64,000 nt of DNA from Acinetobacter lwoffii (lineage in GTDB: Bacteria; Pseudomonadota; Gammaproteobacteria; Pseudomonadales; Moraxellaceae). Shown here one piece after another: positions 895 through 62,146 of the stretch. The stretch spans positions 372,001 through 436,000 of the forward strand of contig NZ_CP077369.1 in NCBI RefSeq assembly GCF_019048525.1, written 5' to 3'. Below the pieces are notes generated by a model. That model was given only the letters and a program-made list of their open reading frames with translations. It had not been told where the DNA came from and did no database searches. Within the stretch, counting starts at the first letter, position 1. Each line of letters begins with the position of its first letter. Made by a program: the position numbers and the translations under genes.

Positions 895-1215
895 TTATTC
901 CGCTGTGCTTTCAGCGGTATCGCCCAAGTCAGCCATTTCAACATCTTGGCCAGCTTTCAGGGTGACGTATGCTTTTTTAACATCAGAACGACGTCCTAAT
1001 GTTTTACCAAAGCGTTTAGACTTACCTTTAGTGATAGTCGTGTTAACTTTAACAACTTCCACACCAAAGAGTTGTTCCACTGCTTTTTTGATTTCAAGCT
1101 TGTTTGCATTTAATGCAACTTTAAACACTTGAACACCAGCAGTTTCACCTAAAACTTGTGCTTTTTCTGAGAATACAGGTCCTTGCAGGACTTGATAGAT
1201 ACGTTCGTTGTTCAT
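895..1215 (-). CDS. rplW: 50S ribosomal protein L23
   Basis: This protein of 106 residues begins [18 protein letters not shown], typical of L23, which binds 23S rRNA at the peptide exit tunnel and docks trigger factor and SRP. The central [15 protein letters not shown] stretch is the conserved basic loop. The start codon overlaps the rplD stop by 4 nt, which implies translational coupling. The alanine- and aspartate-rich carboxy terminus is a short extension beyond the core fold. Confidence 0.97.
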
Positions 1216-1814
1216 GCGAGTTCTACCTCAATTTTCTTAGCAGCAGCTACAGACATAACAACTTTGTCGAACGCAATCAAGCTAACCGGATCGATTGCAG
1301 CAGCATCAACCACATCAACGTGTGGAATGTTGCGCGCAGCAAGATACAGGTTCTCATCAACAGCATCAGTAACGATCAATGCGCGAGTCGCATTCAAGTC
1401 GTTAAGTTTTGCAAGCAATTCTTTAGTTTTTGGAGCTGCAACAGCAAACTCTTCAACTAAAACTAAGCGATCTTGACGAACAAGTTCAGCTAGGATGCAT
1501 TGCATAGCACCGCGGTACATTTTACGGTTTACTTTTTGAGACCAGTCTTGTGGACGAGCAGCAAAAGTTTTACCACCGCCAACCCAGATTGGGCTACGAA
1601 TAGAACCAGCACGAGCGCGGCCAGTACCTTTTTGACGGAATGGCTTGCGACCACCGCCAGAAACGTCTGCACGTGATTTCTGAGCTTTTGAACCTTGACG
1701 GCCACCAGCTAAATAAGCTGTAACCACTTGGTGAACAAGAGCTTCATTAAATTCACGACCGAACGCAACTTCTGATAATTCAACAGCAGAGCCGGAAACA
1801 GTATTTAAATTCAC
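1212..1814 (-). CDS. rplD: 50S ribosomal protein L4
   Basis: This 200-residue protein matches L4 in length and sequence. The motif [19 protein letters not shown] is the extended internal loop that lines the exit tunnel. In E. coli L4 is also the autogenous regulator of the S10 operon. The gene lies between rplC (11 nt gap) and rplW (4 nt overlap). Whether L4 regulates this operon here is not shown by the sequence; the rpsJ leader does hold a hairpin, listed separately. Confidence 0.97.
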
Positions 1815-1825
1815 GTTATTTCCCC

Positions 1826-2464
1826 TCAGGCCTTGATCGTAGGACGAACGATTACGTCGCCACCAGTAGCACCAGGAACCGCGCCTTTAACAACTAGAAC
1901 TGAACGTTCTGTGTCGATAGCAACGATCTCAAGACCCTGTGTAGTTACGCGTTCAGCACCTAAATGGCCAGCCATTTTTTTGCCTTTGAATACGCGACCA
2001 GGAGTCTGGTTTTGACCAGTAGAACCTAAAACACGGTGAGAAACTGAGTTACCGTGAGTTGCATCTTGCGTACGGAAGTTCCAACGCTTAACACCACCTT
2101 GGAAACCTTTACCTTTAGATTGACCAGTTACGTCAACAACTTGACCAACTTGGAACAATTCAACGGTAAGCGTACCACCAACTTCACGACCTTCAAGATC
2201 AGCTTCTGTAGCACGGAATTCTTGAACTAGACGACCAGCTGCAACACCCGCTTTCGCGAAGTGGCCTTTCTGAGCGTTAGTTACGCGAGATTCGCGACGT
2301 TCACCAGTAGTGATTTGAATCGCTTGATAACCATCAGTTTCAAGCGTTTTGATTTGAGTGATGCGGTTAGGATCAACCTCAATCACTGTAACAGGCACAG
2401 AAACACCGGCATCTGTAAAGATACGTGTCATACCGCACTTGCGACCGACTAAACCAATAGCCAT
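1826..2464 (-). CDS. rplC: 50S ribosomal protein L3
   Basis: L3 is one of the first proteins to bind 23S rRNA and initiates large-subunit assembly. The protein begins [16 protein letters not shown], the conserved L3 start, and contains the [14 protein letters not shown] region and the [15 protein letters not shown] motif that reaches towards the peptidyl-transferase centre. I chose the ATG at 2464 rather than an in-frame ATG two codons upstream because L3 proteins begin with MAIGLVG; this gives 212 residues. Confidence 0.97.
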
Positions 2465-2524
2465 GTGCATAAACCTCTAAAAAAGCGGCCTAATTAACTT
2501 AGAGTGTTAATTAACCCGAAAGCC

Positions 2525-2836
2525 TTAACCCAATGCGATCTGAACATCAACACCAGCTGCAAGATCTAACTTCATCAATGCATCTACAGTTTTGTCTGTA
2601 GGTTGAACGATGTCGATCAAACGCTTGTAAGTACGGATTTCGTACTGGTCACGCGCGTCTTTGTTTACGTGTGGTGATGTTAAAACGTTAAAACGTTCAA
2701 TGCGTGTTGGCATTGGAATTGGACCACACACTTGTGCGCCAGTACGTTTTGCGGTTTCTACGATTTCTTGAGCTGATTGATCAATCAGGCGATGATCAAA
2801 AGACTTAAGACGGATACGAATTCTCTGGTTAGACAT
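2525..2836 (-). CDS. rpsJ: 30S ribosomal protein S10
   Basis: S10 is a small-subunit head protein and also acts as NusE in antitermination. The 103-residue product begins [19 protein letters not shown] and ends DVQIALG, both diagnostic. A longer frame reaches back to 2872, but the family start MSNQRIR fixes the ATG at 2836. This is the first gene of the S10 operon. A promoter (3014-3042) and a leader hairpin (2872-2916) precede it. Confidence 0.98.
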
Positions 2837-2871
2837 ACCAGTAAACTCCAAGCCAAATATATAAAGAATCA

Positions 2872-2916
2872 CTCTTGACGCACCTCACCCCACTTTATAT
2901 GGGCAAGTGTCAAGAG
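2872..2916 (-). promoter_or_regulatory. Stem-loop in the rpsJ leader
   Basis: The arms CTCTTGAC (2872-2879) and GTCAAGAG (2909-2916) pair perfectly and extend by a G-T and a C-G pair; an inner CCCA/TGGG pair closes the apical part. The element lies between the predicted promoter and the rpsJ start, so it would be part of the S10 operon mRNA leader. It could take part in L4-type autoregulation, but that role is inferred only from position. Confidence 0.5.
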
Positions 2917-3013
2917 CAGTGAAATATCACTAAGGTCATGATCGATGCCACGACTGTAACGATAGTTAACTACTTTATTCGCAGTTAACCCCCTTCCTAT
3001 TGAAGGGTCGCTT

Positions 3014-3042
3014 ATTATAGCCATTGTTTAATGCATAAGCAA
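3014..3042 (-). promoter_or_regulatory. Sigma-70 promoter of the S10 operon
   Basis: Read on the minus strand, TTGCTT (3042-3037) and TATAAT (3019-3014) are separated by exactly 17 bp. The -10 is a perfect consensus. It lies about 180 nt upstream of rpsJ, leaving room for the structured leader, and faces the ribosomal genes. No other convincing promoter is seen between rpsJ and the upstream gene. Confidence 0.75.
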
Positions 3043-3108
3043 ATCTCTTTTATGGTTTTATCCAAGTTTTCAATTTATGACTTAAAACAATAGTTTATTG
3101 TTTAAATA

Positions 3109-3843
3109 TTAGGCAGTTTTTGCCAAAACATATTCTATAGCACGATTTAATATCTGATTTCCTTCAATAAATTTTTGCTTCGTGGTTTTTTTTAATTCAA
3201 ATAAATTTTGCACATATTTTCCTGAAAATTGCACAAGCTCTTCTTCATTTTCCAAAAACAATGCCAAGGTTGCCGGCGTGATTTCCGGATGAAACTGGAA
3301 GCCCAATACATTTCTGCCCAACTGGTACATCTGATTACGACAGGCTTCATTTTCTGCCAGATGGACTGCACCTTTGGGCAATTCAAATGTTTCATTGTGC
3401 CATTGCAGAATATTGAACTGCTCCGGCAGGCTAAAACACGTCTCTGGTAGATTCGCCACTCTGTGCACCGTGGTCCACCCCAATTCTTGTTCTGGATTGC
3501 GACTAACACCTGCACCCAAAGCATTTGCAATCAACTGCCCACCCAGACACAGGCCAATTGCCGGTTTGCCATGCGAAAGATAGCGACGCAACCAGCGTTT
3601 TTCTATTTTTAACCAAGGGAAATTTGCTTCATCATTCACACTCATGGTTCCCCCCATAATGATCAGCAAATCCACCTCTTCCACAGCAGGCAGCGCCTCG
3701 ATCTCCAGCGGCCGATCCACGGGTAAAGCAAAAAATTCAGTCGCTGTAATGTGCGCCTGATGCTGCTTTAAAAATTCATAACAACTACCAAAACCTTCAC
3801 CAGCAATATGCTGAAAATAATGCACTTTTAAATGCGATTTCAT
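3109..3843 (-). CDS. Class I glutamine amidotransferase-like protein
   Basis: The 244-residue protein is a stand-alone type 1 glutamine amidotransferase domain resembling the glutaminase part of GMP synthase. The nucleophile elbow IGLCLGGQ places the catalytic cysteine near residue 99, and FQFHPE gives the histidine and glutamate of the triad near residues 185 and 187, so the enzyme should be active. The ammonia acceptor is unknown. I chose the ATG at 3843, preceded by GAGGAG, over a TTG three codons upstream. It stands alone, convergent with nothing, upstream of the ribosomal promoter. Confidence 0.85.
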   Translation of the reverse strand: MKSHLKVHYFQHIAGEGFGSCYEFLKQHQAHITATEFFALPVDRPLEIEALPAVEEVDLLIIMGGTMSVNDEANFPWLKIEKRWLRRYLSHGKPAIGLCLGGQLIANALGAGVSRNPEQELGWTTVHRVANLPETCFSLPEQFNILQWHNETFELPKGAVHLAENEACRNQMYQLGRNVLGFQFHPEITPATLALFLENEEELVQFSGKYVQNLFELKKTTKQKFIEGNQILNRAIEYVLAKTA

Positions 3844-24236: not shown

Positions 24237-26111
24237 TTAGTCGTTAAATTTACGACGTGGACGATCTTCACCACCGAACGAACGTTCACCACGTGGCTTG
24301 TCATCAAAGTTGCGACGTACTGGACGATCACCGAAATCACGCTTTGGACGGTCATCACCGAATGAACGCGCTGGACGATCACCGAAACCACCTTCACGAC
24401 GTGGAGCAGGACGATCACCAAAATCACGTTTTGGACGATCACCATAACCGCCTTCACGAGCTGGTTTATAATCTACACGGTTACCACGGTTGTCATCATT
24501 AGAGCGAGGACGGTCACCAAAACCACCTTCACGACGTGGAGCTGGACGATCACCGAAGTCACGCTTTGGACGGTCATCAAACGAACGTTGTGGACGATCA
24601 CCAAAACCGCCTTCACGACGTGGAGCTGGACGATCACCGAAGTCACGCTTTGGACGGTCATCAAACGAACGTTGTGGACGATCACCAAAACCGCCTTCAC
24701 GACGTGGAGCTGGACGATCACCGAAGTCACTACGTGGACGATCTTCGCCAAATGCCGGACGTTCGCCACGAGGTTTGTCATCGAAGCTACGACGTGGACG
24801 ATCATCACCGCCTTCACGACGTTTGAAGTTGCTTTCGCCTTCAAAACGACGACCGCCACCGAAACCACCACGACCGCCATCACGACGACCACCATCACGG
24901 CCACGACCGCGACCAGCGCCATCACGGCTACCACGTGCAGGAGGTGGAGATGGCTCAAGACCTTCAATTTCAGATACGTTTAGACGCGCATCAAGGAAGT
25001 CTTCTAAAGCACGGATTTTACCGCGTTCACGGTAAGTCGCCAAAGTAATGGCTTTACCAGTACGACCCGCACGACCTGTACGACCGATACGGTGTACATA
25101 GTCTTCATTCTTCATTGGAAGACCGAAGTTGATGACGTGTGAAATAGTTGGTACATCAAGACCACGCGCTGCAACGTCAGTTGCAACCAAGATCTTCGCA
25201 CGACCTTCACGGATGCTGCGTAAACGACGGTTACGAACAGTTTGTGGCATAGCACCGTGAAGCGCTACAACTGATAGACCTGCTTCAGCAAGTTCTTCAG
25301 CCAACATATCTGTGTCTTCTTGAGTTGACGCAAATACAACTGCTTGATCAACGTCTTCTTCGTTCAACCAGTGAGTAAGAAGTTTTTTCTTGTGCTCGAA
25401 ACCGTCAGTCCAATGCAAAGTCTGAGTAATATCAGTATTTGTAGAGTGACCAGTTTCGATCGAAATACGCATTGGATCATTCATCATGCGTTCTGCAAGT
25501 GTAATGATACGTGGTGCAAAAGTCGCAGAGAACATAAGAGTTTGTTTGCGGTTTGCAGCCAACTCACCAATTGCTTCTAAGTCTTCAGAGAAGCCCAGGT
25601 CAAGCATACGGTCAGCTTCATCGACGATTAACGCGTCAACTTTATCCAATTTGATTTGACGACGATTCACCAAGTCAAGTAGACGACCTGGAGTTGCAAC
25701 AACAACTTGCGCGCCTTTCAACTGTTGAATTTGTTTACCAAAAGGCATACCGCCCATGATTGCTGCAATACGAACACCTTTCATGTGACGTACAAATGCG
25801 ATTGCGTCTTGACATACCTGTTGTGCCAATTCACGAGTCGGTGAAATCACCAAAATATTCGGTTGAGTAACCGCTTTCATACGGTCTTTAAACGGTACTA
25901 ATGTATCTTGGTTTGCCAACGCATTTAACGTAGGCAGTAAGAATGCAGCAGTTTTACCAGAACCTGTTTGGCTTGACACAAGAAGGTCTTTGCCTTCAAG
26001 CGCAGCTGGAATCGCTTGTTCTTGTACAGGAGTAGGAGTAGTAAAGCCTAAAGCGTCGAGAGCCTGTGTTAGAGATTCGTCGAGGGAAAAATCAGCAAAA
26101 GTTTTGCTCAT
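24237..26111 (-). CDS. DEAD-box RNA helicase with repetitive Arg/Gly-rich tail
   Basis: A 624-residue ATP-dependent RNA helicase. Residues 1-375 hold all motifs: Q motif TPTPVQEQAIP, SQTGSGKTAAF, PTRELAQQ, VDEADRMLD, SAT, and HRIGRTGRAGRTG. Residues from about 390 on form a low-complexity tail of RGG-like and DRP-R-F/D units, including two copies of a 28-residue block encoded by an exact 84-bp tandem repeat. Such tails bind RNA. It is of the RhlE/DeaD type, acting in ribosome assembly or mRNA decay, but I cannot tell which orthologue. A long leader precedes it. Confidence 0.92.
   Translation of the reverse strand: MSKTFADFSLDESLTQALDALGFTTPTPVQEQAIPAALEGKDLLVSSQTGSGKTAAFLLPTLNALANQDTLVPFKDRMKAVTQPNILVISPTRELAQQVCQDAIAFVRHMKGVRIAAIMGGMPFGKQIQQLKGAQVVVATPGRLLDLVNRRQIKLDKVDALIVDEADRMLDLGFSEDLEAIGELAANRKQTLMFSATFAPRIITLAERMMNDPMRISIETGHSTNTDITQTLHWTDGFEHKKKLLTHWLNEEDVDQAVVFASTQEDTDMLAEELAEAGLSVVALHGAMPQTVRNRRLRSIREGRAKILVATDVAARGLDVPTISHVINFGLPMKNEDYVHRIGRTGRAGRTGKAITLATYRERGKIRALEDFLDARLNVSEIEGLEPSPPPARGSRDGAGRGRGRDGGRRDGGRGGFGGGRRFEGESNFKRREGGDDRPRRSFDDKPRGERPAFGEDRPRSDFGDRPAPRREGGFGDRPQRSFDDRPKRDFGDRPAPRREGGFGDRPQRSFDDRPKRDFGDRPAPRREGGFGDRPRSNDDNRGNRVDYKPAREGGYGDRPKRDFGDRPAPRREGGFGDRPARSFGDDRPKRDFGDRPVRRNFDDKPRGERSFGGEDRPRRKFND
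24541..24708 (-). repeat. Exact 84-bp tandem duplication within the helicase gene
   Basis: The block 24541-24624 is identical base for base to 24625-24708, and the next 20 or so bases begin a third, diverging copy. It encodes a 28-residue unit with GFGDRPQRSFDDRPKRD. The copies are in frame. Identity at silent positions shows that the duplication is recent or is kept uniform by recombination. Confidence 0.95.
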
Positions 26112-52785: not shown

Positions 52786-54015
52786 TCAAAACTCCCCACG
52801 CTCTTGTCTTTCCAGCATTAACTGTTTGAGTTGCATGCGTGGCAAAGTAAACCAGAGTGCAATCAGAATCAAAGAGGCAACACAATAGGCCCAGATATCA
52901 TAAGCTTCATATGCCATTCTTACTGCTTCAATTACCACAAAAAAGCTGAGCATCAGGATAATAGAAACCGTCGCAGCCACCGTACCTTTGGACACTTCTG
53001 AAGACATCAGTGCAAAACGGTATAGTACCGAGAAACTTACGCCCTCACCTAGACTGATACAGGTGGTGCCGATAATCAGACAATGAACAAAATACTCTGG
53101 AATCAATAAGCCCAACATCAATAAACCGGCACCCAACAGCATCAGTGGCAGACCCAATAATACGGTTTTACCCAGCGGCATTTTATCGATAATTTTCAGC
53201 AAAATCAGATTACCTGCAATCAGGCCACCCAAGACCGGAAACTGCGCCAGACCATATTGCACACTACTGAATCCAAATTGCTCGACCAGAATCACTGGTG
53301 ACAATGCAATCCATAACATCAAAGGCAGACTCACCAAAGGCAAGGCTACAGTCATAATCACAAAGCGCTTATTTTTTACAACCTGTTTAAAGTCATCCAG
53401 AATATAGCTGACCGGCTGTCTGGGAATACTGACTTTCAGATTTGGCATTTTGGCTTTTAGGCCGAACCAGCTCAGAAATGACAGAAATGCAATGCCGATA
53501 AAACCCCAATGCCAGGAGATATGATCAATCATAAAGGCACCCAGCACTGGTCCTAGCAAGGGTGCCAGCAAAGACACATTGGCCATCAGTGCCATGACTT
53601 TGATGGCATCACGTTCTTCAAAGCTTTCCTGAATGGCGGCATAACCTACAGCAGTAATAAAGGACAGGCCAAAGCCCTGTAAAAAGCGCAGGAATAAGAA
53701 ACTTTCGATATTGGGTGTCAATAAAATGGCCAGACAACTGAGGGTAAAAAATGCCACACCGCCGAGCAGTACCGTTTTACGTCCGAGACGATCGGACAAT
53801 GGCCCCAAGATCGCTGCGACAAATGCCCCGCCCAACAGGAAAAAGGACATGGAGGATGGTGCCCATGAACTACTCACGCCAAAATCACGGGTAATCGCCA
53901 GCATGGCCGGTTGAATCAGGTCATTACAGATATAGACTGAGAATTCAAATAGGACCAGTGCCAGCGGGAACATGAGTGTGGCACGGGTCAGTTTTTGGGT
54001 TTGGATTTTTTGCAT
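52786..54015 (-). CDS. craA: MFS multidrug efflux pump CraA (MdfA-like)
   Basis: A 12-helix major-facilitator pump of 409 residues. It closely matches A. baumannii CraA as I recall it, for example TRATLMFPLALVLFEF, WAPSSMSF, FGSSVQYGLAQFPV-like region and SSEVSKGTVAA. CraA gives intrinsic chloramphenicol resistance; MdfA is the E. coli relative. The acidic residue in VLFEF is the family's drug-binding glutamate. The ATG at 54015 is directly used. Confidence 0.9.
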   Translation of the reverse strand: MQKIQTQKLTRATLMFPLALVLFEFSVYICNDLIQPAMLAITRDFGVSSSWAPSSMSFFLLGGAFVAAILGPLSDRLGRKTVLLGGVAFFTLSCLAILLTPNIESFLFLRFLQGFGLSFITAVGYAAIQESFEERDAIKVMALMANVSLLAPLLGPVLGAFMIDHISWHWGFIGIAFLSFLSWFGLKAKMPNLKVSIPRQPVSYILDDFKQVVKNKRFVIMTVALPLVSLPLMLWIALSPVILVEQFGFSSVQYGLAQFPVLGGLIAGNLILLKIIDKMPLGKTVLLGLPLMLLGAGLLMLGLLIPEYFVHCLIIGTTCISLGEGVSFSVLYRFALMSSEVSKGTVAATVSIILMLSFFVVIEAVRMAYEAYDIWAYCVASLILIALWFTLPRMQLKQLMLERQERGEF

Positions 54016-54163
54016 GGGAGTTTTTATTGTCAGTCTGCCTGATGAAGCAGAATGAGCTTTATCTAAAATAGAAAGAAGGAATTTTAGCAGATTTGCTTTT
54101 AATAGTTTTAGGATAACTCCTCTAACGCTACTCTTTCTTTGATCTGAAAATTTATTTCAGGGT

Positions 54164-54846
54164 TTAGTTAAATTGAAGCCAACCATTTTTCATCCACTGT
54201 TCTACTTTATCCTTTCCAAGAATTGCTAAAAGATTATTTAGGAGAGAAAATTTAGCCAGCTTATCAAAATAATAGACTCCAACTCTAACGTTACGATCGA
54301 TATCATCGTTTAAACTAAATAAATCAAGAATGTAATCCTTATCCGAAACATCTAATGAATGACCCCAAATATTAAAATTTAAATCTAACTTCATTATCTT
54401 TAAAAAATGCTCTTCTCGTTCTTGTTCAATTTGATTGTTTGGATAATTATGACTTTTATGTTTTTTATATTTTTCTAAAGTATCTTTCAACTTTTTTTTA
54501 TATTCATCTAAAAATAAATAATGAGTATCTTTAAATAATTTTTGATGATATTTGGTGAAACCGTACGCTTTTAGCTTTTTAAGTGATTCATCTTCTAACT
54601 GTGAGATACCTAAAACTATATTTTGAAAGTCTCCATGATTCCCATGTAAGTAATCAACTTCAATCGAATTATAGATACGTTGATATGTATTAGTATAGTT
54701 AAATGAATAAATTTTATCTGGATTAATCCAGTCATCTGAGGAAATTTGAATATTGTTATTCGAATTAATTTTATTAACTATCAGTTCTAAATATAAATTA
54801 AATATTTCTATAAATTCTTCTAAATTTTTTACTAAATTATTTACTA
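54164..54846 (-). pseudogene. 3' part of an AbiH-family gene interrupted by an IS
   Basis: The downstream half of the AbiH-like gene. The codons from the insertion onward read without stops to a TAA at 54166-54164. Translation gives FNYTNTYQRIYNSIEV with LHGNHGDFQN and the carboxy-terminal NIWGHSLDVSDKDYI, which are characteristic AbiH segments. It contains about 227 codons, is very AT-rich compared with its neighbours, and has no start codon or promoter of its own. It cannot be expressed as part of the full protein while the IS is present. Confidence 0.88.
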
Positions 54847-55685
54847 GGGCGTGTCCTCATTTGAAGAATTGGTTTTAAATACTTAAAATCCTCCTTTGAG
54901 TTATTTTTATTTCTATATTTTCAATGGCACGTACTCTTCTTACCGATGATATCTGGCAGCAAATTCAAGATACTATGCGATTACATGGTTGTTACTGTTC
55001 AAAGAATAGTAGAAATATCATGGAAGCGATCTTATGGAAACTGCGTACAGGCGCCACATGGCGTGATATTCCTCAAGAATTTTGTCCTTGGCAAACTGCT
55101 TATAATCGTTTTAATCGTTGGGCAAGCAAGGGATTGTGGAATAAATTTTTTTTAGATTACGAGGCGTCTTGGATCAAGAATGGGTATTCATTGACGGAAG
55201 CTACATACGCGTGCATCAACATGCAAGTGGAGCTCGGAATGGTTTCGAAAGAGCAATTGGACAATCACGTGGTGGACGAACAACAAAAATACATCTTGCA
55301 ACCGACGCGAATGGATTACCGATTGATTTTAAAATCACTGGGGGTGGCGTCCACGACAGTCAAGTTGCAAAACAACTGATTGATACTGTAGGCGAGGCAA
55401 CTTATCTCATTGCTGATAAGGGGTATGATGCTGAGCACATTAGAATATATGCCCAGAACAAGGATATGATTCCCATCATTCCAATGAGATCAAATAGTAA
55501 AAGATCGAATAAGGAGTTTGATAAATATCTATATAAATTAAGACATTTAGTTGAAAATGTGTTTGCGAGATTGAAGCATTTCCGAGCGATTGCAACCCGA
55601 TTTGATAAGCTTGCACGAAATTACCAGTCTATGATTTACATTGCTTGCATATTTATTTGGTGTAAAGCCAAATGAGGACACGCCC
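54847..55685 (+). mobile_element. IS5-family insertion sequence (IS427-like)
   Basis: An 839-bp element with terminal inverted repeats GGGCGTGTCCTCATTTG (17 bp identical at both ends). It is bounded by a TA target duplication (54845-54846 and 55686-55687). It carries one transposase split over two frames. The element lies in the AbiH gene, on the opposite strand. The intact ends and open frames suggest a fairly recent and still mobile insertion. Confidence 0.92.
54924..55675 (+). CDS. IS5-family transposase (programmed -1 frameshift)
   Basis: Frame A (54924-55379) encodes a DUF4096-type helix-turn-helix region (ILWKLRTGATWRDIP). Frame B (to 55675), in the -1 frame, encodes the DDE domain: FIDGSYIRVHQHASG, then TYLIADKGYDAE, then HLVENVFARLKHFRAIATR. 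The frames overlap at AAATTTTTTTT (55143-55153), a likely slippery site, giving a product of about 250 residues. The DDE residues are D in IDGSY, D in DKGYD and E in VENVF. Confidence 0.9.
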
Positions 55686-56429
55686 TAGGGTGTCACTATT
55701 AAATTTCTTATAACCCAATAAAAATTGGATATTTTCATCTTTTATATAGAATCGAAAATCCCCAATATCTGAATCATTAACCTTATGTATATTTGTATAG
55801 GTATGTCCAGATTCATCATTATCTATTTCATCAATAAAGTAGCCAGATTCTAAGATTCCTAATTTTTCTAGAATATTACAGTTTTCTCTGGTCAAAAAAA
55901 TTTGCCATTCATTGCTGTCTCCAGAGAAATAAACTTCCGGAGAAAAACTTCCAACTTTTTCTATTTTTTCTTCTATATTCTCAATAAATCTTGCAACTAC
56001 TCTCAATGCCTCATCAATTTTATTTTCAAAATCAATCCAAGTTTTAACTTCTCTAACATGATCCTTGAAATACTGATACCAACAATTCAGTTCCAATCTA
56101 TATTGGATCTTTAATACATCTTTAGCGGATAAATTAATTTTATCTACTAAATAATACTCTTTTGTTTTATCTATAAATTTAATATCTCTTATTTTTAAAA
56201 ATAACTCATTAAAGCTCATATCGAACTTAAACGAATCAGGATTTTTATTTTTTAGGAACATGTCATCGAGTATATCCATCCATTCTTGCACTGTATGAAT
56301 TGTTAAGTTTGGGGCCTTTCCACCAGTATTCTTATTTTCAATTGCCTCCATCACATCCATAAAATGATCGTACTTCGTCGGTAAATAGTGCGACAAATCA
56401 AATCCGTTCCCCACAATCAAAATATTCAT
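55686..56429 (-). pseudogene. 5' part of an AbiH-family phage-defence gene, interrupted by an IS
   Basis: The upstream half, 248 codons beginning MNILIVGNGFDLSHYLPTKY, the diagnostic nucleotide-binding-like opening of AbiH abortive-infection proteins. With the IS and one copy of TA removed, this half joins the 3' half in the same frame to give a 474-residue protein. Now translation runs 12 codons into the IS and stops (TLGRVLIWLYTK). Only 21 bp separate the start from a terminator, so a promoter must lie further up or in read-through. It is very AT-rich, a mark of transfer. Confidence 0.88.
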
Positions 56430-56450
56430 TCTTATAAACCCCAAAAACAA

Positions 56451-56476
56451 AAAAGCGCATCCTTAGATACGCTTTT
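56451..56476 (-). terminator. Intrinsic terminator after the 56507 gene
   Basis: AAAAGCGCATC pairs with GATACGCTTTT with one mismatch, around a short CTTA loop. It is on the minus strand, 30 nt past the stop of the lipoprotein-like gene and 21 nt before the abiH start. Confidence 0.78.
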
Positions 56477-56506
56477 AACCAAAATCTACCTAAAGATCAA
56501 ACACTA

Positions 56507-56884
56507 TTATGGACAGACCGCTTTCTGGTAAGTCTTGGTATTTGAACCTCGTGCACAACGATATAACTTCTCGGTATTTTGCAGCATCCAGCTGTTATCT
56601 TCCCGTTTAAAATAATAAATGGTCTGCACTGAGCGTACCGAATCATCCATTAACCCAGTTTCAGTGACTTTGACCTGTCCAATCGTGGGCGACTCTACCT
56701 TGTCAAAGAACTGACGCAATTCAACCGTTGCCAGTTCCTTACGCAAGTCCGGTCTTAATTGTAAAACCTGTTCCAAAGGCGTATCTGAAGACGACTGTAC
56801 CTTTGCAATGACCTGTTGAGCAGTTGCACAGCCTGAACCCAATATACCAAAAGCTAGAGTTACGACTGCCAATATCCGGAACAT
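56507..56884 (-). CDS. Hypothetical exported protein (lipoprotein-like)
   Basis: A 125-residue protein with a signal MFRILAVVTLAFGILGSGCATA; the cysteine at 19 could be lipidated, although the preceding LGSG is only a loose lipobox. The mature chain has VELRQFFDKVESPT and ends with RCARGSNTKTYQKAVCP, with a possible disulphide. No family recognised. I chose the ATG at 56884, not an upstream one that would precede the signal. Confidence 0.68.
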   Translation of the reverse strand: MFRILAVVTLAFGILGSGCATAQQVIAKVQSSSDTPLEQVLQLRPDLRKELATVELRQFFDKVESPTIGQVKVTETGLMDDSVRSVQTIYYFKREDNSWMLQNTEKLYRCARGSNTKTYQKAVCP

Positions 56885-56982
56885 ATTGTTTAACCCTATA
56901 TCATCATTCTTATTCCCACCCATCATGCCGAGCTTCTTCGTACAAAACCATTTAGACTCTGTAACTGTATTTACACAGCAAT

Positions 56983-60146: not shown

Positions 60147-61022
60147 ATGCTGAATTTTAAAATTGCACCTATTGTGCAAGCGCCGCTGATTTTGCTGATC
60201 GCCATGATCAGTATGCAAAGCAGTGGTTCCTTTGCCAAATATCTGTTCGGTCAGTTTCCCATCCTGACTGTTTCCGCAATGCGTCTGCTGTTAGGCGCTA
60301 TGATTTTGGCGCTGATTTTTAAAATTTGGCAAATCCATTTCAGACAGATCAAGTGGCCGGCCATTATCAGTTATGGCCTTGCTCTGGCTGGTATGAACCT
60401 GCTGTTTTATCTATCTATTAATCGCCTGCCGCTGGGAATTGCCGTCTCTTTTGAATTCATTGGCCCCTTAAGTGTTGCCCTGTTTTATGCACGTCAGAAA
60501 TTTGACTTTATCTGGGTCGGACTGGCAATTCTAGGTCTCATTCTACTGTTCCCTTTTGATCAGGCTGCCCAGCCACTTGACCCGATCGGGATTGCATTCG
60601 CCCTGGGTGCTGGTGCCTGCTGGGCCTTATATATCGTTGCCGGCCAAAGACCTTCAGGCATTTCTGGCAATCATACTGTCTGCCTAGGCATGTTTGTCGG
60701 CATGCTGGTTTTGATGCCGATTGCGCTCTTTGCAGGCATGCCGGCATATACTTTTGAACCGATGAGTTTGCTGTATTTTGTGGCTTTGGCTGTGTTGGCC
60801 AGTGCCCTGCCTTTCACTCTGGAAATGATTGCACTGCGTAATTTAAGCGCACTGAGTTTCGGCACCTTGATGAGTTTGGAACCCGCTATTGCCGCACTCT
60901 CGGGGCTGATCTTTCTAGGCGAAACCTTGTTGTGGACACAGTGGCTGGCATTGGCCACGATTATCAGTGCTTCGGTAGGCTGTACGGTGACCATGCAAAA
61001 GCGCAAAAATAAAAATATTTAA
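60147..61022 (+). CDS. DMT-family exporter (RhtA/EamA type), first copy
   Basis: A 291-residue protein with ten hydrophobic segments, two EamA repeats. SSGSFAKYLF, GMNLLFYLSINRLPLGIAVSFEFIGPL and ALGAGACWALYIVAGQR match RhtA, a threonine/homoserine exporter of E. coli. The substrate here is unknown. It is followed by a paralogue. The ATG at 60147 opens MLNFKIAPIV. Confidence 0.87.
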   Translation: MLNFKIAPIVQAPLILLIAMISMQSSGSFAKYLFGQFPILTVSAMRLLLGAMILALIFKIWQIHFRQIKWPAIISYGLALAGMNLLFYLSINRLPLGIAVSFEFIGPLSVALFYARQKFDFIWVGLAILGLILLFPFDQAAQPLDPIGIAFALGAGACWALYIVAGQRPSGISGNHTVCLGMFVGMLVLMPIALFAGMPAYTFEPMSLLYFVALAVLASALPFTLEMIALRNLSALSFGTLMSLEPAIAALSGLIFLGETLLWTQWLALATIISASVGCTVTMQKRKNKNI

Positions 61023-61267
61023 ATCATTGATCATTTTCTACTGTAGGAATTTTTAAATTCAAAGTTTTGCGCAGTGATTTTTACACTTTGAATTTAAAAT
61101 TTTCTGGTCATTTATGGAGCTTAAAAATTTAAATTCATTTGCGTTAAATTTAAGGCAACTGTTCACAAAATATTCTCTCTGCCTACTCATCAAAAATTAA
61201 CCAGTTTGCTATAATCTGCCTTTCTCCCTGACCTGAATTCTGTGCCTGCCTGGCATATCAAACTCCC

Positions 61268-62146
61268 ATGCCAAACGCCCAACTCCTTGCTGTGTTGTAC
61301 ATGGTTTTATCCATGACTTCATACCAGATCAGTGCATCCTTCGCGAAGCAATTATTTACTGTACTGGACCCGCTGACAGTAACCATTTTGCGTCTATGTT
61401 TTGCCGCCATTATTGTCTGTGTGATGTTCCGTTCCTGGAAAATTATCTCGCGACTGCCCTATCTCAAATGGAAAGATTTACTCTGCTACAGTGCAGCACT
61501 GGGCCTGATGAATATCCTGTTTTATATGTCACTGGGCAGACTGCCTCAAGGGATTGCAGTCGGTCTGGAATTTGTAGGACCGCTAGGGCTGGCGTTGTTA
61601 TCCATTAAAAATCGCAGTGATTATATCTGGGTAATTCTGGCCATTTTAGGAATCGCATTGATGGTGCCATGGGGACAAGCTGCCAATCATCAGTTTGACC
61701 TGCTGGGTGCTGCCTGTGCATTAGGTGCTGGTCTATGCTGGGCCTTTTATATTTTCTTTGGTCAGCGTGTGGTACAGCAGAATATGGGTATGCATGCCCT
61801 GACCATTGCCATCAGTATTTCTGCGCTATGTTTACTTCCATTCGGGCTATATCACAATGCGGCAGCAGTTCTCGATACCCAGCATTGGGGCAAAGCCATT
61901 ACCATTGCAATTCTGGCAACAGCCATTCCTTATGCTCTGGATTTAAAGGCACTTCAGCATTTGAATAAAACCAGCTATGGTACCCTGTCCAGCCTGTCTC
62001 CGGCTTTGGCTGCACTGGCCGGTTTTGTACTATTAGGCGAAAAAATTACGCTTCTTCAGACCGTGGCACTGATCTGTATCATGCTGGCATCAGTCGGCGT
62101 GACTGTACGTGCCGCCCGTCAAGGATCGGGAGAAAAGAATACCTAA
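61268..62146 (+). CDS. DMT-family exporter (RhtA/EamA type), second copy
   Basis: A 292-residue paralogue of the preceding gene, sharing the layout ISASFAKQLF, GLMNILFYMSLGRLPQGIAVGLEFVGPL and ALGAGLCWAFYIFFGQR. The two are clearly related but not recent copies. Between them lie 245 bp. The tandem pair might export related amino acids. Confidence 0.87.
   Translation: MPNAQLLAVLYMVLSMTSYQISASFAKQLFTVLDPLTVTILRLCFAAIIVCVMFRSWKIISRLPYLKWKDLLCYSAALGLMNILFYMSLGRLPQGIAVGLEFVGPLGLALLSIKNRSDYIWVILAILGIALMVPWGQAANHQFDLLGAACALGAGLCWAFYIFFGQRVVQQNMGMHALTIAISISALCLLPFGLYHNAAAVLDTQHWGKAITIAILATAIPYALDLKALQHLNKTSYGTLSSLSPALAALAGFVLLGEKITLLQTVALICIMLASVGVTVRAARQGSGEKNT

What the first reader, a model, noticed from the sequence alone, without database searches (positions are those of the whole stretch)
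54164..56429. AbiH phage-defence gene split by an IS, restorable in frame
Removing the 839-bp IS and one TA joins the two halves in one open frame of 474 codons with AbiH-type segments on both sides (NILIVGNGFDL at the start, FNYTNTY and GHSLDVSDKDYI after the junction). The lack of any other stop suggests recent inactivation and possible reversion by excision. The patch is far more AT-rich than its neighbours, which fits acquisition as a defence gene.
Basis: partly seen in the sequence, partly recalled or inferred. Interest (0 to 1): 0.75.

Follow-up and report, generated by a model that had tools for sequence, protein, structure and literature searches.

The report
Twice-broken AbiH gene at swap site
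A phage-defence gene in an Acinetobacter chromosome has been cut in two by a small jumping gene and also carries a second, smaller fault, and it sits at a spot where related species keep different defence genes.

Summary
An 839-bp IS5-family element (54847-55685, TA duplicated) splits an AbiH gene on the minus strand (54164-56429). Each half alone passes PF14253 and the lengths keep frame (744 + 681 nt). I never joined the halves. Intact natural copies exist: P0004 (493 aa) is 99.6% and 99.1% identical to the two halves.

The "restorable" reading fails. Against P0004 the window has a second lesion, a one-nucleotide frameshift near the 3' end. The last 19 residues are still encoded, but out of frame, so the stop at codon 475 is premature. 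The lost end includes an Asn-Pro pair kept in all 119 homologues whose ends are complete.

The setting is more interesting. Between the terminator of a small conserved gene and craA lies an interval of 171-5054 bp in 90 loci: empty in close relatives, AbiH in 27, elsewhere other defence genes or unknowns. AbiH divergence does not follow craA. AbiH is broken in 8-10 of 42 genomes, craA in 1 of 89. A decaying member of a known family at an apparent defence-exchange site.

The parts
55688..56429 (-). 5' part of abiH, from the ATG at 56429 (GNGFD loop and hypervariable middle)
   Evidence: PF14253 39.2 bits, profile 1-79; 99.6% to P0004 over 244 aa
54164..54844 (-). 3' part of abiH (FNYTNTY and GHSLDVSDKDYI motifs), ending at a premature stop
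   Evidence: PF14253 61.3 bits, profile 101-247; 99.1% to P0004 over 226 aa
54847..55685 (.). IS5-family insertion element, 839 bp
   Evidence: Inverted ends; length and copies at 99.5% and 94.5% in the same genome
54845..54846 (.). TA, one copy of the duplicated target
   Evidence: Sequence; other copies of the element also sit at TA
55686..55687 (.). TA, other copy of the duplicated target
   Evidence: Sequence
54924..55379 (+). Transposase, first reading frame (151 aa)
   Evidence: NF033580 81.5 bits, below its 110 cut-off because partial; PF13340
55169..55675 (+). Transposase, second reading frame (168 aa), overlapping the first
   Evidence: NF033580 187.8 bits, cut-off 110; PF01609
54108..54167 (-). 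Terminal 19 codons and stop of abiH, now out of frame (second lesion lies at its upstream edge)
   Evidence: Shifted frame reads as the end of P0004
56451..56476 (-). Terminator-like hairpin after lp, upstream border of the variable interval
   Evidence: Similar hairpin found in 56 of 90 loci
56507..56926 (-). lp: small conserved gene (139 aa, function unknown), upstream flank
   Evidence: Found in 126 of 149 Acinetobacter genomes; no Pfam family above cut-off
52786..54015 (-). craA: chloramphenicol efflux transporter, downstream flank
   Evidence: NF052292 759.7 bits, cut-off 725

Best explanation
The window holds a recently inactivated AbiH abortive-infection gene. Shown: an IS5-family element splits it at about codon 248, at the end of its hypervariable middle, and a one-nucleotide frameshift near the 3' end truncates it further. 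The first part keeps its start but runs into element sequence; the second part has no ATG before its residue 155. Inferred: neither piece works, because the invariant N-terminal loop is separated from the conserved central and C-terminal motifs. Also inferred: the gene arrived as a single-gene cassette in a fixed interval between the lp terminator and craA, where Acinetobacter species swap defence genes by recombination in the conserved flanks without an integrase, and where unneeded genes are lost by insertion elements, stops or deletion. How intact AbiH works is not shown; a Sir2-type enzyme is a published prediction that I could not confirm.
For: AbiH matches of both halves; intact P0004 and junction-spanning P0118; shifted-frame end identical to P0004; starts in the second half; conservation pattern. 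Site: 90 loci with lp and craA, gap 171-5054 bp, about 192 bp in five close relatives, AbiH in 27, other defence families in five more. AbiH against craA distance rho 0.012 (859 of 2000 permutations), lp against craA 0.396 (12 of 2000), 19 loci; craA against yccS 0.77, 13 loci. No phage homologue and one plasmid-collection record, itself 4.09 Mb. Broken AbiH 8 of 42 clear, 10 of 42 with contig-end cases, craA 1 of 89.
Against: The frameshift could be a sequencing error; no reads were available. Residues after the lost Asn-Pro pair vary between relatives, so the cost of the truncation is uncertain. glcD, of which only a short piece was available, gave no clear contrast (0.192 with craA, 0.213 with AbiH, 17 loci), and lp against AbiH was 0.49 in 13 loci though 0.136 in 19. 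The profile comparison with SIR2_2 found nothing. Many loci hold non-defence genes (pirin, flavodoxin-fold, RlaP).
Confidence: 0.75

Rival explanations
1. Reversible switch: the element moves in and out precisely, so the population holds both forms and the gene can be turned on again.
For: Target duplication is clean and the frame is kept by length; uninterrupted alleles nearly identical to both halves exist in databases.
Against: The second lesion would remain. The uninterrupted alleles come from other samples, P0118's source is not shown, and alleles without the element are equally expected from never having had it. Related loci show stops and a deletion, not only insertions.
Confidence: 0.05
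2. Mutational target: AT-rich genes with suitable sites collect insertion elements by preference, so the repeated breaks say little about selection against AbiH.
For: The element sits at TA, mostly CTAG-like, and hit an unrelated AT-rich gene at the same site in G171; an IS30-type element split another one in G060.
Against: Four of the eight clear breaks are stops, shifts or a deletion, which target preference does not explain. The reading shares with mine that the gene is dispensable.
Confidence: 0.3
3. Old vertical gene: AbiH was ancestral at this site and has been lost many times, with its divergence from fast evolution and no exchange between species.
For: Nearly fixed position next to lp across the genus; the remnant in G173.
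Against: AbiH distances ignore craA while craA follows yccS and lp. Other unrelated single genes occupy the same interval.
Confidence: 0.15

Closest known systems
AbiH abortive-infection family (PF14253; first described in Lactococcus lactis)
   Same: Both halves match the family model above cut-off in the right order; natural full-length relatives carry PF14253
   Different: About 450-500 aa with a hypervariable middle against a 260-position model; here interrupted and truncated; protection not tested
IS5-family insertion elements
   Same: Transposase model NF033580, inverted ends, TA target
   Different: Nothing unusual; transposase in two overlapping frames
Defence hotspots between conserved core genes
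   Same: Conserved flanking genes with differing defence genes between them
   Different: Very small, usually one to three genes, and no integrase among the families scanned. Whether lp-craA is among the hotspots of Yi et al. 2025 (Commun Biol; seen only as a reference in PMC12421847) is unknown: that paper is not held
Sir2-superfamily defence enzymes
   Same: Published prediction that AbiH is a Sir2-superfamily enzyme (PMC3506569, passage); similar order of short motifs by eye
   Different: No detectable profile similarity to SIR2_2 proteins here

Membership tests
AbiH (PF14253) | Match to the curated family model | tested here: met
   39.2 and 61.3 bits for the halves searched apart, cut-off 30.9
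AbiH (PF14253) | Complete reading frame | tested here: not met
   Split by an element and truncated by a frameshift: a broken member
AbiH (PF14253) | Protection against phage | not testable with these tools
   No experiment; protection is reported for S. thermophilus AbiH (PMC12322248, passages)
IS5 family | Transposase, inverted ends, target duplication | tested here: met
   NF033580 187.8 bits, cut-off 110; inverted ends; TA both sides
Sir2 superfamily | Profile or fold similarity | tested here: inconclusive
Defence hotspot | Conserved flanks with varying defence genes | tested here: met
   90 loci; AbiH, PD-T4-7, dCTP deaminase, PRTase-CE with NADAR, NACHT
Defence hotspot | Enrichment of defence genes over other variable sites | not tested
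   No genome-wide comparison of variable sites was made

The most novel reading that the evidence does not exclude
The interval between the lp terminator and craA is a genus-wide, integrase-free parking place for single defence genes that species trade by homologous recombination. The unknown genes found there (a 218-aa family in five loci, a 353-380-aa family in five loci, and single genes in L084 and L112) would then be undescribed anti-phage genes, and AbiH in this genus would sense phage through its hypervariable stretches.
Probability: 0.35. Interest if true: 0.6.

Novelty: new member of a known kind. Interest (0 to 1): 0.4.

Why it matters
An insertion element in a defence gene is ordinary. 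The comparative setting is useful: one small, well-bordered interval lets gain, exchange and loss of single defence genes be followed across about 90 Acinetobacter species, gives a measure of decay against intact neighbours, and points to unknown genes worth testing. AbiH's mode of action is still listed as unknown (PMC12322248, table passage). Acinetobacter carries it often (42 of 175 genomes), the phylum at large rarely (2 of 298 other genomes; different query profiles, so only a rough contrast).

Tried and rejected
Restorable gene: rejected because of the second lesion. Sir2 homology by profile comparison: no signal. Solved structures: one chance match, E 0.88. Spread by phage or plasmid: no phage match, and one record in the plasmid collection, 4.09 Mb long, at 42% identity. 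AbiH travelling with lp: rho 0.49 in 13 loci but 0.136 in 19 (306 of 2000 permutations), so not claimed. Naming the species: the genome-contig search says that records of the window's own genome may be left out, and no near-identical named record turned up there or in the protein searches, so only the genus is given. Rfam and tRNA scans of the window found nothing. Literature: listings for AbiH with Acinetobacter (9 papers) and for craA with genomic islands (10 of 13 listed) showed nothing on this site by title or abstract start; I make no claim that it is unpublished.

Rows dropped: of 125 other genomes with lp (126 of 149 with the window's), 98 regions were fetched; G144 (short contig) and the 26 weakest matches were left out. 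G014 was fetched without lp. Nine of the 98 had no craA in place and were left out of the 90-locus counts. Of 39 cargo clusters, 20 proteins were scanned with Pfam, 10 of them with PADLOC, and 10 cargo or insertion proteins with NCBIfam. For shared clusters only one copy was scanned.

Full report
What was checked. The finding describes an AbiH gene on the minus strand split by an insertion element. The element runs from 54847 to 55685 (839 bp), with perfect inverted ends, TA on both sides and an IS5-family transposase in two overlapping frames (NF033580, 81.5 and 187.8 bits, cut-off 110). The genome holds a copy at 99.5% and two at 94.5%. A search with 54017-56506 found 107 Acinetobacter plasmid records; the 20 listed all match only about the element's part, best 98.9%. 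The two gene halves match AbiH separately and in order, and their lengths keep frame.

Intact copies. A protein search with the AbiH of a related genome (G032, 77% and 90% identical to the halves) returned P0004, 493 aa, in a cluster of 27 sequences. It is 99.6% identical over 244 residues of the first half and 99.1% over 226 residues of the second. P0118, a partial sequence whose source is not shown, is identical to the first half and runs uninterrupted past the insertion point. So intact copies exist and the break is recent on the scale of these proteins. One residue at the junction differs between the window and these alleles.

The second lesion. P0004 is longer than the window's arithmetic frame (493 against 474). 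The last 19 residues are still encoded at 54108-54167, identical to the end of P0004, but in another frame. The lost end contains an Asn-Pro pair invariant in 30 of 30 aligned sequences. A pattern for it fits 118 of 120 proteins; of the two others, P0109 has the pair in a variant context and P0118 is cut off by its contig. Residues after the pair vary (mean pairwise identity 0.38 for 476-493), so the size of the effect is uncertain, and a sequencing error cannot be excluded. Either way, this sequence does not bear out that the element is the only lesion.

The protein. Among 30 relatives, residues 1-27 are nearly invariant (mean pairwise identity 0.99), residues 301-360 and 403-475 are conserved (0.78 and 0.81), and residues 141-247 and 361-402 are hypervariable (0.22-0.28). 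The element sits at the end of the first hypervariable stretch. It separates the N-terminal GNGFD loop from the central and C-terminal motifs. The second half has a TTG at its residue 123 and no ATG before residue 155, so expression in two pieces is unlikely. A Sir2-superfamily enzyme has been predicted for AbiH (PMC3506569, passages). My profile comparison with 11 SIR2_2 proteins did not detect it; the score was within that of shuffled controls. The AbiH profile is shallow, so this does not exclude it. The mechanism is listed as unknown in PMC12322248 (passages), where S. thermophilus AbiH inhibited Vansinderenvirus phages.

The site. The upstream gene lp (56507-56926) is found in 126 of 149 Acinetobacter genomes. 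I fetched the regions of 98 of the 125 others, and one without lp. In 90 loci with lp and craA, window included, the distance between them is 171-5054 bp, median 1932. Five close relatives (L071-L075; lp 94-96%, craA 98-99% identical) have only 191-193 bp there; three others as close (L069, L070, L076) carry a 218-aa gene of unknown function. AbiH lies in the interval in 27 of 90, one of them a remnant. Other occupants include a PD-T4-7 relative (cluster of 2), an anti-phage dCTP deaminase (cluster of 2; the copy scanned scores 443.6 bits, cut-off 400), a PRTase-CE with NADAR pair (1) and a NACHT protein (1), besides pirin, RlaP, flavodoxin-fold and other genes and unknowns. A terminator-like hairpin after lp, allowing three errors, is seen in 56 of 90.

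Exchange. Among 19 loci with intact AbiH, AbiH distances do not follow craA (rho 0.012; 859 of 2000 permutations reach it), while lp and craA agree (0.396; 12 of 2000). craA and yccS agree at 0.77 in 13 loci. glcD, a short piece only, gave no clear contrast (0.192 with craA, 0.213 with AbiH, 17 loci). P0004 has no match in the phage collection and one in the plasmid collection, a 4.09-Mb record. Exchange by recombination in the flanks is my inference; natural transformation is a plausible route (recalled, not tested).

Decay. AbiH occurs in 42 of 175 genomes of the genus. By reading frame, 32 of 42 are intact; G053 is counted intact although the start pattern missed it. Eight are clearly broken: the window; G017 and G161 by IS5-type and G011 by IS1-type insertions (transposase matches below their curated cut-offs, in partial frames); G063 and G081 by early stops; G085 by shifts; G173 by deletion. 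Two lie at contig ends (G073, G214). In the neighbouring loci craA has one internal stop in 89, yccS is split in 1 of 65, and lp fell under the coverage limit in 4 of 99 without stops; marks stops within the lp match in 2 genomes (G021, G144). Fisher tests against craA give p = 4.6e-4 for 8 of 42 and 4.3e-5 for 10 of 42. Species are not independent and the two criteria differ, so these are guides only. In G171 the same element (99.8%) interrupts the 218-aa gene at the same site, and in G060 an IS30-type element splits another unknown.

Verdict. This is a twice-broken AbiH gene at a small interval that looks like an exchange site for defence genes. The break itself is ordinary; the interval is moderately interesting and its unknown occupants are testable. 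I did not test whether defence genes are enriched there over other variable sites. Whether the site is already catalogued is open: a 2025 paper on Acinetobacter defence hotspots exists (seen as a reference only) but is not held.

Noticed in passing
L076 (G171), oriented 1027-2524: The same element (99.8%) interrupts a different gene, the 218-aa unknown, in the same lp-craA interval of a related species.
   Followed up: yes
L077 (G060), oriented 1072-3178: An IS30-type element splits another unknown gene (353-380-aa family) in the same interval.
   Followed up: partly
L152 (G008) oriented 2028-3281; L148 (G014) 1952-3229: AbiH lies between glcD and lp in G008, and between glcD and craA without lp in G014.
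   Followed up: no
L143-L163, oriented about 2150-2540 (14 loci): A second, weaker lp copy (25-28% identity) lies just before craA in 14 loci, with oppositely directed genes between the copies; the one scanned (L149) is a flavodoxin-fold protein.
   Followed up: no
L113, L118: A gene of the D-Ala-D-Ala ligase family occupies the interval in two loci (one copy scanned).
   Followed up: no
55146-55153: A run of eight T lies near where the two transposase frames overlap, a possible programmed frameshift site.
   Followed up: no
24320-24899: Tandem repeats (84-bp unit, 2.7 copies, 98% matches, and smaller units) within the reading frame of 24237-26111, which looks like a DEAD-box helicase (name from the sequence, not searched).
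   Followed up: no
60147-62146: Two neighbouring transporter-like genes that look like paralogues (by eye, not tested).
   Followed up: no
L099-L162 and other AbiH loci: AbiH relatives are nearly identical over residues 1-27 yet differ widely in the middle, which may mark a specificity region.
   Followed up: partly
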